The translations under genes and the position numbers were made by a program. From Denitratisoma sp. DHT3 (GTDB taxonomy: Bacteria > Pseudomonadota > Gammaproteobacteria > Burkholderiales > Rhodocyclaceae), in the NCBI RefSeq assembly GCF_007833355.1, contig NZ_CP020914.1, positions 1,288,047-1,352,046 on the forward strand: a DNA stretch of 64,000 bases. Direction: 5' to 3'. Within the stretch, counting starts at the first letter, position 1, and each line of letters starts with the position of its first letter. This document shows positions 5,179-36,900 of the stretch, piece by piece. The notes below the pieces were generated by a model. That model was not told the origin of the DNA. It saw only the letters and a list, made by a program, of their open reading frames with translations, and ran no database searches.

Positions 5179-5227
5179 GGTTTGCTCCAGGTTGGAAACA
5201 CGAATCGGCTGCGATGGGCGATGAGCA

Positions 5228-30447: not shown

Positions 30448-30599
30448 AAGGCGGCGGATTATAACGATCCCCCGATTTGACGGCAACAGACGCCAACAAC
30501 ACACAGTGACAGCCATTCGTCAGAAATAATTGACCGCTGACACCATTGGTACTGGCGATCCCGGATGAAACAGAAAGAAAATACGAGGAGGAGGAGAAG

Positions 30600-31043
30600 A
30601 TGATGAAAAGCAAAACGGACCGTGGCTTTACCCTGATCGAACTCATGATCGTCGTTGTCATCGTCGCCATCCTGGCGACGGTCGCCGTGCCGTCGTATCT
30701 GGATTATGTGGCCCGTAGCCGCATCACCGAGGCGGTCGCCAACTTGTCCGAAATGCGCGTGAAGATGGAGCAGTACTTTCAGGACAATCGGTCCTACGCC
30801 GGGGCCTGCAGCAACGGCACGGTCGCCCCGCTTCCCGCCAACACCGGAAATTTCCAGTACAGCTGCCCTGCCGCGAATCTCACCGCGACCGGCTACGTCG
30901 TTCGCGCCGACGGCATTGGCCCCATGACTGGCTTTGCCTACACCATCGATCAGTCCAACACCCGTACCACCGTTGCCCTTCCCGCTGGGTGGGCCGGCAC
31001 GAACAACCCCTGCTGGGTACTCAAGCGGGACGGTTCCTGTTGA
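30600..31043 (+). CDS. pilE: Type IV pilin (PilE-like)
   Basis: The 147-residue prepilin has a short basic leader with cleavage after Gly (TDRG / FTLIELMIVV), Glu at +5, a hydrophobic N-terminal helix, and Cys pairs in the C-terminal half (GACSNG, YSCPAA, NPCWVL, GSC), including a likely D-region disulfide. It heads a minor pilin operon; pilE in this position is usually a minor or accessory pilin. A purine-rich GAGGAGGAG ribosome binding site precedes tandem ATGs at 30600 and 30603. Confidence 0.9.
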   Translation: MMKSKTDRGFTLIELMIVVVIVAILATVAVPSYLDYVARSRITEAVANLSEMRVKMEQYFQDNRSYAGACSNGTVAPLPANTGNFQYSCPAANLTATGYVVRADGIGPMTGFAYTIDQSNTRTTVALPAGWAGTNNPCWVLKRDGSC

Positions 31044-31061: not shown

Positions 31062-31637
31062 ATGAAAATACCTCGGTCGCAGGGCTTCTCGCTGGTCGAA
31101 TTGATGATCGCCATCGCCATTGCCGCCTTGCTCCTGGTCATGGGCATTCCATCATTTACCACCATGATCCAAAACTCGAAATTGCGCAGTGCCGCCGAAA
31201 ATTGCCTGGCCGGATTGCAAAGAGCGCGAGCCGAAGCCTTGCAGAACAACAGCGACGTCGAATTCCTGCTGACGGACGATGCACCGATTGCCGCCAACGT
31301 GGCGGCGTTCAATCCAAACGAGACCGGTGGAAACTGGGTCATACGAACCGCCGACATGAGCGACTTCATCGAAGGACATGCCGGTATCGAAGGCAGCGGC
31401 CAAACGTCCGCCTCGAACGTGGCGGTCACCGGCAACGGCATCGCATCCATCGTTTTCAACGGATTGGGCCGCACCAATCTCGCAGCCACCGCCACCTTCG
31501 GTTTCACCAATCCCGCGGGCGGCGCATGCGCACCGGCTGGCGCCATGCGCTGCCTCAACGTGCTGGTATCGGTAGGCGGGCAAATCCGCCTGTGCGACCC
31601 CGCCGCCACCGGAACGGGAGATACCCGTGGCTGCTAG
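31062..31637 (+). CDS. fimT: Minor pilin FimT/GspH family
   Basis: The 191-residue prepilin has leader MKIPRSQG / FSLVELMIAI, Glu at +5, then the GspH/FimT pattern (SKLRSAAENCLAGLQRARAEALQNN) and a beta-rich C terminus with CDPAATG near the end. FimT-like minor pilins help prime pilus assembly and can bind DNA during transformation. It lies 18 bases after pilE and overlaps pilV by 11 bases. Confidence 0.9.
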   Translation: MKIPRSQGFSLVELMIAIAIAALLLVMGIPSFTTMIQNSKLRSAAENCLAGLQRARAEALQNNSDVEFLLTDDAPIAANVAAFNPNETGGNWVIRTADMSDFIEGHAGIEGSGQTSASNVAVTGNGIASIVFNGLGRTNLAATATFGFTNPAGGACAPAGAMRCLNVLVSVGGQIRLCDPAATGTGDTRGC

Positions 31638-32106
31638 GCATTGGCCGGGCGCGCGGGAACAAGGCATCGTGCTCATCGAGGCGATGATCGGCATCCTCAT
31701 CTTTTCGATCGGCGTGCTGGCCGTCATCGCCATGCAAGCCTCGGCCATTTCCGCCCAATCGGATGCCCAGTACCGGATCGAAGCCTCGAATCTCGTGGAT
31801 CGCATGATGGGCGAAATCAATCTCAATGTTGACCGATCCAACGCGACCAACCTGCAAAACTCCCTGGCCGCCTTCAGCCACCAACCCAACGGCGCCAATT
31901 GCGATTTCTCAGGCACGGCCTCCGACAATGCCCAAGTCGCTGCCTGGCTGAACGACGCGACGGCCCAGTTGCCCGGGACCAGCGCCGCCATGCAGCAAAT
32001 CATCGTCGATACTGGAAATTTCAACCAGGTGTCGATCACCCTGTGCTGGCAAAACAGTGCCGATTCGGTTCCACGTCGGCACACCCTGGTCGCCTACGTC
32101 AACTGA
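31627..32106 (+). CDS. pilV: Minor pilin PilV
   Basis: The 159-residue prepilin has leader ending REQG / IVLIEAMIGI with Glu at +5 and hydrophobic helix FSIGVLAVIAMQ, typical of PilV. The GTG start at 31627 lies in the end of fimT. PilV forms part of the tip-priming minor pilin complex with PilW, PilX and PilY1. Confidence 0.88.
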   Translation: MAARHWPGAREQGIVLIEAMIGILIFSIGVLAVIAMQASAISAQSDAQYRIEASNLVDRMMGEINLNVDRSNATNLQNSLAAFSHQPNGANCDFSGTASDNAQVAAWLNDATAQLPGTSAAMQQIIVDTGNFNQVSITLCWQNSADSVPRRHTLVAYVN

Positions 32107-32113
32107 GCCCGCC

Positions 32114-33232
32114 ATGCCCGAGCGCCTTTCCTTACCCGGACGACGTGCCGCCCAAGGCTTTTCCCTTGTGGAAGTCATGATCGGCATGATCATCGGACTA
32201 CTGGGCATCCTCGTCATGTTTCAGATGCTGTTGAACTGGAACGAACGAAAGCGCACCGCCGCCTCGGGTAGCGATGCCCAGATCTCCGGCTCTATCGCGC
32301 TCTACAGCCTGGAGCGGGAGCTTCGCAATGCAGGCTACGGCTTCGGCAACGCCGGCGCCATGGGGTGTACCGTCACGGCCTACGACCGCCTGAGACCCGG
32401 CAACAATTTCACATTTCCCCTTGTACCCGTCCAGATCACCGATGGCGCGGGGGGCTCACCGGACACGATCACAGTGTTGTTCGGCAACTCTGCGCTGACG
32501 TCCGACAGCACCACCTACAGCGCATCCAGCGCAACGACAAAACGCTTGAACGACCCGAGCAGCATCCAGCGCGGAGATTTGCTGGTAGCGGCCCAGGCCG
32601 GTGCCTGCGGGCTTGTGGAAACCACCCTGAACACCCATGCCGACGGCCTCACGATCACCCACGCCTCGGGCAATTACAACGACCCCGACAACACGGCCGT
32701 CACTGCCCGTTACAACCCCGCCGCGGGTCTGGCCGTCGCACTGAGCGCCGGCAATATTTTCAACCTGGGCCCCCAGCCCCGGCGCAATGTCTGGCGGATC
32801 GTCAACGATCGCACCCTTGTCAGCACCGACGACCTGCACTACTCCGATCAACACGACGCCGCCGGACAGAACACCCCCGACGGCATGAATGACTGGACCG
32901 AAGTCGCCGACGGCATCATCGACCTGCAAGCCGAATATGGCTTGGACAGCGACGCGGACAACATCGTCGACACATGGCAATCCGCCGCGCCGGCGGACTT
33001 CCGGACCGTTCGCGCCATCCGGGTCGCGCTCCTGGCGCGCAGCCAGCAATACGAAAAACAGGCCGTCACCACCGTGGCGCCATCCTGGGCCGCCGGCGCC
33101 TTCGTCATGACCAATCTTGACGGAACGCCCGACTCGAACCCCGGCACGCCAAACGATTGGCGCCGCTACCGCTATCGGGTCTATGAAACCGTGGTGCCCT
33201 TGCGCAACGCGGTCTGGGGGAATTCGCCATGA
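32114..33232 (+). CDS. pilW: Minor pilin PilW
   Basis: The 372-residue PilW-type prepilin has leader ending RAAQG / FSLVEVMIGM with Glu at +5, then a long soluble domain with the family segment SIALYSLERELRNAGYGFGN near residues 55-75. PilW joins the minor pilin tip complex. ATG 32114 is used: the frame is open further upstream in pilV, but the leader fits this start. It overlaps pilX by four bases. Confidence 0.9.
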   Translation: MPERLSLPGRRAAQGFSLVEVMIGMIIGLLGILVMFQMLLNWNERKRTAASGSDAQISGSIALYSLERELRNAGYGFGNAGAMGCTVTAYDRLRPGNNFTFPLVPVQITDGAGGSPDTITVLFGNSALTSDSTTYSASSATTKRLNDPSSIQRGDLLVAAQAGACGLVETTLNTHADGLTITHASGNYNDPDNTAVTARYNPAAGLAVALSAGNIFNLGPQPRRNVWRIVNDRTLVSTDDLHYSDQHDAAGQNTPDGMNDWTEVADGIIDLQAEYGLDSDADNIVDTWQSAAPADFRTVRAIRVALLARSQQYEKQAVTTVAPSWAAGAFVMTNLDGTPDSNPGTPNDWRRYRYRVYETVVPLRNAVWGNSP

Positions 33233-33890
33233 ACGCCTCCATGACGTACCGGACGGCCATCCCCAAACGAGAACAGGGGATCATCCTGATCGTCGCCCTG
33301 GTCATGCTGGTGGCCATGACCCTGGCCGGCATCATCCTCTTTCGACAAATCGGCTCGGGGGTCATCATTGCCCGCAACCTGACCTTTCGCCAGGGGGCCA
33401 CCATCGGTGCGGACCGCGGTATCGAGGCGGGGCGCGCCTGGATCATGGGGCAGGCACAGTCCGCGCTGGAGCAAGCCAACGTGGGCGCGGCCTACTTCCC
33501 TGCCTGGTGCAACATTTCCATCAATGCCAGCAATCGCCCCGACGCCAACAACGATGGCAACACCGACGACTGCGGCCCCCCCCCCCCGGCACCAGCCCCC
33601 TCCCGAAATTCACGCCCGCCAGTTTCAACTGGGCCAATGCCGTGCAGGCGGTTGCCGATGACGGTGCCGGCAACGAAATTCGCTATGTCATTCATCGCCT
33701 TTGCCGGATTCCCGGTTCCGTCAATAGCGCCGGGCAGCAATGTGCCACCAAGGCCTCGGCCGACAACGCCAACTGTCCCGAGGCCAACGCCACCTGCATC
33801 ACGGCAACCGCGCAACCCTACTATCGAATCACGGCCCGCGCCCGAGGGCCCCTGGGCACCACCTCCTATACCCAGGCCATCCTGTATTGA
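33229..33890 (+). pseudogene. pilX: Minor pilin PilX, split at a C12 tract
   Basis: The first 115 codons encode a PilX leader and helix (KREQG / IILIVALVMLVAMTLAG; no Glu at +5, as usual for PilX) and a GxxGADRGIEAGRAW segment. After a run of 12 Cs at 33576-33587 the correct sequence (FNWANAVQAVADD ... YYRITARARGPLGTTSYTQAILY) continues in another frame to the stop at 33888-33890. Ten or thirteen Cs would give one intact protein of about 220 residues. With 12, the ribosome reads a proline-rich frame to 33996, past the pilY1 start. It is either a phase-variable gene or a homopolymer error. Confidence 0.85.
33576..33587 (+). repeat. Poly-C tract (C12) inside pilX
   Basis: Twelve consecutive cytosines, the longest homopolymer I noticed in the window. 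It sits inside pilX and breaks its frame. Such tracts are classical sites of slipped-strand mispairing. Confidence 0.95.
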
Positions 33891-33901
33891 GGAGCATCGC
33901 C

Positions 33902-36900
33902 ATGTTCCCTGGACACCGCTCGACGACCGCCTTGATGCTCGCCCTGATGCTGCAGGGCTTCATCCAGAACGCCCAGGCCCTGACGGATCTGGCTGACGTT
34001 CCCTTGGCCAGCTCATCCTCCACCCAGGTCAAGCCCAACATTCTTTTCATTCTGGATGATTCGGGGTCCATGAATTGGACCTATATGCCAGACGGCGTCG
34101 GCAGCAGCGCCATAGGCTACCGGAATCACCAATGCAACACGGTTTTCTACAACCCGGCAACCAGTTACGAAATCCCCAAGGACTCAGCAGGCGTCGACCT
34201 GAACAGCGGCAGTCAGACCAGCTTCACCAGCGCATGGGACGAAGGCTTTCACGATTACATGTCGGGCGCCGGCACCAGCCGAACCAACCTCGGCACTTCG
34301 TTTTCCGCCAATGGCAGCGAAAGCGGGCGCGCAGCCTATTACTGGACCCTGGCGGCCACGGACCTGGGCACGCCGGTTCCCGACACTGGCATTTGCAATT
34401 ACTCCACGGGCTCGGTGACCAGTTCCACGACCGGTATTTGCTGTAGCGGCCCATCGATCTCCAGCGGCACTTGTTCCAATGCCACATACCCCACCAACAG
34501 CCCCCCCACGTGCAGCGGCGGTAGAACCCTGGTCTGGGAAAAAACCCTTGTCAGCAGCACATCGGGCATTTCCGGCGGTGATGAACGGCAGAATTTCGCC
34601 AACTGGTACAGCTATTACCGCTCGCGCATTCAGATGATGAAGTCCTCGGCAGGTCGGGCACTTGCTCCCCTGACAGACAGTTACCGCGTCGGATTCATCA
34701 CAATTCACCCTGGTACGGTGAATGATGCTGGCGGAGCCAATGGTAGTTCCGTCTCAAGTTCAAAATTCTTGAAGATCGCTGACTTCGATACAACCCAGCG
34801 TTCTAGCTGGTATTCGAAGCTGTACTCGCAAAAAGGAGATTCAGGAACACCCCTACGTACCGCACTTTCCATTGCAGGCCGCTACTTCACCGGCAAGAAC
34901 GACTCCATCAACAAGGGCATGGTGCCTAACCAAGCCGATGATCCCGTCCAGTACTCCTGCCAACAGAATTTTGCGATTCTGACGACGGATGGTTATTGGA
35001 ACGACGGGAATGGCCGCAAGATCAATGGCAGTACCCTCATGGATAATCAGGACGGTGCCCTGGCCGAACTGGATGCCTACAACTCAGGAACCAGCCGTTT
35101 TCCGGTTTCGCCTCGGCCGATCTATGACGGTGGTTCGGCCAATTATGTCTGGAACACCGCTTCCAACGCCTATCAGTACACAAGTTGTTCCCTGACGCGC
35201 CCTCAAGCCAAAACAAGGCAGCTCCAGAAACGTACGGTGCAAAACCAACGCCGCACGGCAAATTTTTCGAAGTGTCGGCCGGGGCCATCAAACTGCCAAG
35301 CCATCAATTTCGATTGCACCGTATCGGGTACAGGCGATAGCTACCGCTCAGTTTGCCGGGTCACCTCTGATTCGGGATGGAACAATATTGGCACTTGTAC
35401 CGCCGGATACTCAGACCCCACGACAACCCTCTGCCGCGTATCCAGCGACACGGGTTTTGTGAACTCCGGCACCTGCACAGCCTCCAATCCCGGCAGCAGC
35501 CCCACCGTCACCTGCCGAACCGCAGATGTCACGAGCTGGGCTTTCGTGGACTCCTGCACCCCCTCGGGGCCGGACGTGAACGGCACCTCCGTGGTGTGCC
35601 AAACCGGCACCGACTCCAACGGCAAGAAGATTCAGAATCAAACCACCACGACGGCCACCCGTTATGAAGGCCCCGACCAGAGCGGCAGCATCGTCGGTTC
35701 ACCCACGATAACGCAGGGGATCTGGACCGATCTCACCGGCGTCTGCTATGCAGCCGGATCAGTGCCCGCGCTTCCCGCCGACGATGCGATTACCGGCGGC
35801 GGTCCTCCGACACCGCCGTCGGGATGTTCCGCCTGGCCGTGCGAAACCACCAGCACCAGCGGTGGCAGCAGCAATACCCTGGCGGACGTTGCCCAGCACT
35901 ATTACAAGACCGATCTCCGTACTTCGGCCCTGGGCAACTGCACCGGCGCCCTGGGTACCGGCGTCACCGTCTGCGACAACAACGTCCCGCACAGCGGTCT
36001 CGATACCGACAACGAGGCCGACAGGGCCAACTGGCAGCACATGACCACCTTTACCATGGGACTTGGGCTTTCAGGCACCTTGAATTACCGCTCCGACTAC
36101 AAAACCGCGGATTCCGGTGATTTCAAGGACATCAAGGGGGGTACCAAAAACTGGCCGATCCCGAAAGCCGACGACCCAACCGCACTGGACGATCTATGGC
36201 ATGCAGCGGTCAACGGCCGGGGTCAATATTTCAGCGCCCGCGATCCGGACAGCGTGGTCAACGCATTGTCTTCCGCCCTCTCCGGCATCAATGCCCGGGT
36301 CGCTTCCGCCGCGGCGGCGGCCACCTCAAACCTGGAGCCCGTGGCGGGAGACAATTTTGCCTACACGGCCCAATTCGTCACCCAGAAGTGGATCGGGGAG
36401 CTGACGGCCCGTGAAATCGACCTGAATACAGGCGCGATCAGCGGCACCAGCATCTGGTCCGCTCAGGCAAAACTGGAAGCCAAGGCCAAGGCCGCCTGCG
36501 ACAACCGCACCATCAAGCTGTTCCGCAGCGGCGCCGCCGACAATCTGGCGGATTTCACATGGGACACCTATGCCTGCGATGCGAGCGGCAACCCCGCCGG
36601 AACCGCGTCGACGGGGCTCGACGCCGCGGAGCAGGCCAATTTCGGGGCATCCCAGATCGCTCTGTTGAGCCAATACCCCTCGATGACCGACGGCACAAGC
36701 GGCACGGTCAATCAGCGTTCAGCCGCCGCCGGGGCCAATCTGGTGAATTACCTGCGCGGCCAGGGCGGCAAAACGCCCTTCGAGGCCAATGACTTGAACA
36801 AACTGTTCCGGGCGCGGGAAAAGATCATGGGGGACATCGTCAATTCCCAGCCCGTTTTCGTGAAGGCCCCCTCCGCCAGCTACAACGACAGCGGCTACAG

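What the first reader, a model, noticed from the sequence alone, without database searches (positions are those of the whole stretch)
33229..33996. C12 tract splits pilX: possible phase-variable switch controlling the pilus tip complex
The pilX frame is intact except at 12 Cs (33576-33587). Ten or thirteen Cs restore a normal PilX ending at 33890, 11 bases before the pilY1 ATG, whose ribosome binding site overlaps the pilX stop. With 12 Cs, translation runs to 33996, past the pilY1 start, so tract length could change both PilX and PilY1. Slippage at homopolymers is known for other pilus tip genes (for example Neisseria pilC), but I know of no such case for pilX.
Basis: partly seen in the sequence, partly recalled or inferred. 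Interest (0 to 1): 0.75.

Follow-up and report, generated by a model that had tools for sequence, protein, structure and literature searches.

The report
Poly-C tract breaking a pilX gene
In what seems to be a harmless environmental bacterium, a run of 12 identical bases breaks the reading frame of a gene for a pilus-tip part; such runs mutate easily, so it may be a random on/off switch, but the sequence alone cannot rule out an assembly error or a simple loss.

Summary
In detail: C12 at 33576-33587 separates two halves of pilX that lie in different frames; as assembled, translation runs to 33996, past the pilY1 start. In 36 of 36 other loci where both halves were found, pilX is one open frame with C/G runs of at most 7 in the aligned part. 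A database protein 90% and 96% identical to the two halves is also intact. The tract thus looks private and recent, and the downstream half has not decayed. The host is inferred to be a Denitratisoma, probably strain DHT3, sequenced with nanopore reads, so a miscounted tract is a serious rival. Against it, five coding tracts of 9-11 elsewhere keep their frames. Best reading: a real, slip-prone tract in a loop before the beta-sheet head of PilX, hence a candidate on/off site; switching is not shown. A second tract (G11, in frame) lies in another minor pilin of this genome and is absent from the sister species. Known kind (Neisseria pilC), new gene and setting. Interest 0.37.

The parts
30546..31043 (+). 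pilE-like pilin (ComP_DUS / N_methyl)
   Evidence: Pfam PF16732 E 3.9e-12 and PF07963
31062..31637 (+). fimT/GspH-like minor pilin
   Evidence: PF07963 and PF12019 GspH
31627..32106 (+). pilV minor pilin
   Evidence: TIGR02523 above cut-off
32114..33232 (+). pilW minor pilin (ORF opens at 32057; ATG at 32114)
   Evidence: PF16074 PilW E 5e-18
33229..33575 (+). upstream half of pilX: prepilin helix and loop
   Evidence: 69 protein relatives, best 90% identical; PilX_N at E 0.019, below cut-off
33538..33576 (+). acidic loop PDANNDGNTDDCG that ends at the tract
   Evidence: similar in the relatives aligned; resemblance to calcium-binding DxNxDGxxD loops is recalled, not tested
33576..33587 (+). 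C12 tract
33588..33890 (+). downstream half of pilX (beta-sheet head), in another frame
   Evidence: 34 protein relatives, best 96% identical; GC3 0.75 in its own frame against 0.56 in the frame read through the tract
33229..33996 (+). frame as assembled: 255 aa, overlaps the first 95 bases of pilY1
33888..33901 (+). pilX stop, overlapping ribosome site and 11-base gap to pilY1
   Evidence: identical in sister genome L084
33902..38341 (+). pilY1, 1479 aa, intact
   Evidence: PF05567 E 9e-40; hits in 33 of 41 genomes, own genome included

Best explanation
The tract is a real, recent expansion of C in the loop between the helix and the beta-sheet head of PilX, not seen at this site in any relative examined. 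DNA polymerase slippage should change its length more often than ordinary sequence changes, so cells should move at random between a state that makes full PilX and states that make a headless PilX with an unrelated proline-rich tail. The assembly shows a headless state. In that state ribosomes pass the pilX stop and the pilY1 start and end 95 bases inside pilY1, which may also lower PilY1. Shown: the tract, the two frames, intact relatives, a downstream half without stops or decay, an intact pilY1. Inferred: slippage in this organism, the effect on PilY1 and on pili, and that selection keeps the tract.
For: tract; 36 of 36 loci with both halves have pilX in one open frame, longest C/G run in the aligned part 4-7; P0001 90%/96% identical to the halves, intact, no long proline run; P0002-P0004 likewise intact; codon signal kept in the downstream half; model of P0001, mean pLDDT 82: helix 14-73, all strands of three or more residues from 135 on, the tract site at residue 116 in a loop; five coding tracts of 9-11 elsewhere in the genome keep frame; Neisseria pilC tracts of G9-20; a second tract, G11, in another minor pilin of the same genome, absent from the sister species.
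Against: No read data and no second isolate, so not one alternative tract length has been seen. No relative examined has the tract at this site. MutS is present, which should keep slippage low (recalled). The run-length excess in the genome is modest (2 against about 0.4). The host was probably assembled from nanopore reads. At least one other gene of this genome, an ABC transporter ATPase, looks frameshifted at a place that is not a long homopolymer. Against D. oestradiolicum the downstream half looks less constrained than the upstream half (dN/dS about 0.45 against 0.22).
Confidence: 0.48

Rival explanations
1. Assembly error: a long C tract exists, but its length is miscounted and pilX is in frame in most cells.
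For: PMC7448270 passage: DHT3 was sequenced with nanopore long reads, which are weak at homopolymers (recalled). The tract ties for the longest C/G run in the genome. Two of 53 ABC_tran matches are the parts of one gene that looks frameshifted.
Against: Five coding tracts of 9-11 keep their frames; a coarse ORF survey shows no other broken gene in the 64 kb; completeness 99.97%. A counting error is unlikely to make a run of 12 where relatives have about one C, so the tract itself would stay real.
Confidence: 0.32
2. Fixed loss: pilX was knocked out by the tract, in nature or in laboratory culture, and the gene is an early pseudogene.
For: The frame is broken in the only genome held; MutS is present, so reversion could be slow.
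Against: The downstream half is 96% identical to P0001 and has no stop; pilY1, pilW, pilV and fimT are all open.
Confidence: 0.14
3. RNA polymerase or ribosome slippage at the tract yields some full PilX without any DNA change.
For: The run is long and the downstream half is conserved.
Against: Bacterial transcript slippage is best known at A/T runs (recalled); no relative examined carries the tract at this site, so it is no conserved programmed site.
Confidence: 0.05

Closest known systems
Neisseria pilC1/pilC2 poly-G phase variation
   Same: Long G/C run inside the frame of a pilus-tip gene; PilC is the PilY1 homologue; lengths 9-20 (PMC5953494 and PMC13190605, passages).
   Different: The tract is in the signal-peptide region of the tip adhesin; here it is in the middle of the minor pilin PilX next to pilY1. 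Switching there is shown, here not.
C-terminal phase variation (gonococcal mafB and pilin cassettes)
   Same: A C run that changes the C-terminal sequence (PMC5320596, passages).
   Different: Here the alternative tail is a chance frame running over the next gene, and the pilin head is lost.
PilX of type IVa pilus tip complexes
   Same: Lies between pilW and pilY1; no Glu5 in the prepilin motif; several intact homologues carry the JGI name PilX.
   Different: Pfam scores lie below the curated cut-offs; frame broken as assembled.

Membership tests
Simple-sequence contingency (phase-variable) locus | Long repeat tract inside a reading frame or promoter | tested here: met
   C12 in pilX
Simple-sequence contingency (phase-variable) locus | Tract length decides the frame of an otherwise intact gene | tested here: met
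   Two conserved halves in different frames
Simple-sequence contingency (phase-variable) locus | Tract kept, with varying length, among strains or close relatives | tested here: not met
   0 of 36 relative loci carry it at this site; strains of the same species could not be compared, none turned up
Simple-sequence contingency (phase-variable) locus | Reversible length change within a culture, with a phenotype | not testable with these tools
   Needs reads and cells
PilX minor pilin | Prepilin-like N-terminal helix and PilX domain matches | tested here: inconclusive
   PilX_N E 0.019 on the upstream half and PilX C-term E 1e-4 on an intact relative, both below curated cut-offs
PilX minor pilin | Sits between pilW and pilY1 | tested here: met
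   directly upstream of pilY1 in the sister genome L084 too
Neisseria pilC-type switch | Tract in the signal-peptide region of PilC/PilY1 | tested here: not met
   Tract is in pilX; pilY1 has no run of 8 or more

The most novel reading that the evidence does not exclude
This free-living strain has begun to build a pilus phasome: two minor pilins in two separate clusters (pilX with C12, an MshC-like pilin with G11) each gained a slip-prone C/G tract directly after a Cys-Gly pair, so that pilus tips are re-dealt at random in an environmental bacterium. At pilX the tract would also tune PilY1 through the overlapping stop and ribosome site.
Probability: 0.17. Interest if true: 0.65.

Novelty: new member of a known kind. 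Interest (0 to 1): 0.37.

Why it matters
To my knowledge, phase variation of pili by homopolymer tracts is known mainly from host-adapted Neisseria; in one survey phase-variable pilC alleles were found only in the pathogens (PMC5953494, passages). A tract that switches pilX in a free-living denitrifier would show that random switching of surface attachment also pays outside hosts, perhaps for surface life or against phages. It would also put PilX, the part predicted to contact PilY1, on the list of switched genes. If it is an error or a loss, it matters only as a correction to one genome.

Tried and rejected
Conserved switch in the family: rejected, no relative locus has the tract at this site (0 of 36). 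One relative MAG (L047) does have a C9 near the start of its pilX, in frame. Old pseudogene: made unlikely by the downstream half, although against D. oestradiolicum its dN/dS is about 0.45 against 0.22 upstream; part of that comes from a stretch that differs in kind between the two lineages.

Enrichment of long tracts in pilin genes: I examined 38 C/G tracts of 11 or more in this genome and in relatives of its genus, family and order. They are not all: the list was cut short, at least five listed tracts (G056 contigs 24, 310 and 347, G035 contig 80, G042 contig 90) were not fetched, and some of the 38 lie at contig ends. Two lie in ORFs with a strict prepilin motif (the MshC-like pilin here; a PilE-like pilin in G012); the pilX tract is a third, which that motif does not catch. 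With roughly 0.3% of a genome in pilin genes (my estimate, from 13 N_methyl matches in G000) chance would give about 0.1. The test was made after seeing the first case and is only suggestive.

RNA structure hiding the pilY1 ribosome site: none beyond chance (z 0.73 and -0.44). Fold comparison of the P0001 model with the PDB: no match at E up to 0.001; a Thermus competence pilin came seventh at E 0.66. A sequence profile found one unrelated hit at E 0.0096. Literature: the listings (searches showed 20 of 22 and 20 of 41 papers) held no paper that by title or start of abstract reports a phase-variable pilX; pilX does not occur in the main texts of three Neisseria repeat surveys. Accession search for the presumed genome record: no paper.

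Full report
Where it is. The window is bases 1288047-1352046 of a single-contig genome of 3,655,561 bases. A same-genus genome (G001) has a contig of 4,168,563 bases, exactly the chromosome length printed for Denitratisoma oestradiolicum DSM 16959 (PMC7448270, passages). The same passages say that the genome of Denitratisoma strain DHT3 differs from it in length by around 500 kb and was obtained with nanopore long reads; the difference here is 513 kb. I infer that the window is from strain DHT3, an environmental estrogen-degrading denitrifier. No record name was seen, so this stays an inference.

What is there. A pilin operon reads pilE-like, fimT/GspH-like, pilV, pilW, pilX, pilY1. Inside pilX stand 12 C. 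Upstream, 116 residues match PilX proteins, best 90%; downstream, about 100 residues in another frame match PilX proteins, best 96%. The best match of both is one protein, P0001, 216 aa, intact, without a long proline run. As assembled, translation from the pilX start goes through the tract into an unrelated proline-rich tail and stops at 33996, 95 bases inside pilY1.

Relatives. Of 66 loci compared (many fetched for pilY1 alone), 38 matched both halves; leaving out the own genome and one duplicate, 36 of 36 have pilX in one open frame, and the longest C or G run in the aligned part is 4 to 7. Some of these loci are near-copies of each other, so they are not 36 independent cases. One MAG (L047) has a C9 near the start of its pilX, in frame and outside the aligned part. 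In a DNA alignment with four relatives, all four share one length at the site, and this genome is longer by a number of bases that is not a multiple of three. In 59 of the 61 proteins (of 95) in which a pattern could measure it, the linker after the cysteine has the same length. The tract is thus a gain seen only here, at a place of constant length. A model of P0001 (mean pLDDT 82) has one long helix (14-73), a loop region, and all strands of three or more residues from 135 on; the tract site, residue 116, lies in the loop. Losing the frame removes the whole beta-sheet head.

Is the assembly to be trusted? Of 18 C/G tracts of 9 or more in the genome I judged 8 to lie in genes; the gene names are my reading of the translations. 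Five are inside clear genes and keep frame: IscR, ParC, an MshC-like pilin, and ORFs of 310 and at least 907 residues. Two are weakly placed, near the end or start of an ORF, and also open. Only pilX is broken. In the 64 kb window a coarse survey found no other broken gene: 57 called ORFs cover 92% (two of them are spurious antisense calls over pilX), and the three largest gaps, not the smaller ones, were read in six frames. On the other side, one ABC transporter ATPase elsewhere seems frameshifted at no long homopolymer and another ABC match is a truncated piece, and the probable nanopore origin makes miscounting likely exactly at the longest runs. I cannot decide between a true out-of-frame state and a miscount; in both cases the tract exists.

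Effect on pilY1. The pilX stop overlaps the ribosome site of pilY1 and lies 11 bases before its ATG. This stretch is letter-identical in the sister species and similar, with 14 bases, in two MAGs; in the other 28 loci listed the spacing and ribosome site vary, and I did not fix each pilY1 start there. The arrangement here fits translational coupling, which a 2026 paper on myxobacterial PilY1 marks by a star in its gene clusters (PMC13190605, legend passage). [quoted passage not shown] aeruginosa. A headless PilX should therefore hurt the tip complex in any case. RNA folding gave no sign of a hidden ribosome site.

A second tract. In the same genome a C11 (G11 on the coding strand) lies in frame in a minor pilin of another pilin cluster, just after a Cys-Gly pair (N_methyl over cut-off; 'MshC-like' is my label). 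The sister species' best match has no such run. A related case, C11 in frame in a PilE-like pilin upstream of pilY1, is in a more distant genome of the family (G012). Of 38 tracts of 11 or more examined, these two and pilX are in pilin genes. This is suggestive but was noticed after the fact.

Verdict. The switch is a fair hypothesis, not a finding: the expected mechanism is slipped-strand mispairing at a C tract, as in Neisseria pilC, but at a different gene and so far in one strain only. I put 0.48 on a real slip-prone tract with a true out-of-frame state, 0.32 on a miscount, 0.14 on plain loss, and 0.05 on slippage at the RNA or ribosome level.

Noticed in passing
L108:4993-5565 (-), tract 5180-5190; genome 2361179-2361189: An MshC-like minor pilin carries a G11 run (coding strand) in frame, coding for a glycine run after a Cys-Gly pair; absent in the sister species.
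   Followed up: partly
L103:2473-2483 (genome G012): A PilE-like pilin upstream of pilY1 in a relative has a C11 run in frame.
   Followed up: partly
L047:3639-3647 and L036:4951-4959: C9 runs, in frame, near the start of pilX in one MAG and inside pilW in another.
   Followed up: partly
L156 around base 1121; genome about 3637720: An ABC transporter ATPase domain is split over two frames without a long homopolymer: true mutation or assembly error.
   Followed up: partly
window 33538-33576: The PilX loop PDANNDGNTDDCG, similar in close relatives, looks like a calcium-binding DxNxDGxxD motif (recalled resemblance).
   Followed up: no
L120 (C18), L129 (G20), L112 (C14), L121 (G12): In other genomes of the family long C/G runs sit in or just before large ORFs that look to me like signalling genes; candidates for strain-specific switching.
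   Followed up: no
L109:5272-5283; genome 2376271-2376282: The other C12 of the genome seems intergenic, beside an inverted-repeat-like element.
   Followed up: no
window 33741-33799: P0001-P0003 and this genome share a version of the PilX head with extra cysteines (NCPEANATC) that differs in kind from that of the other relatives aligned, D. oestradiolicum-like P0004 included.
   Followed up: no
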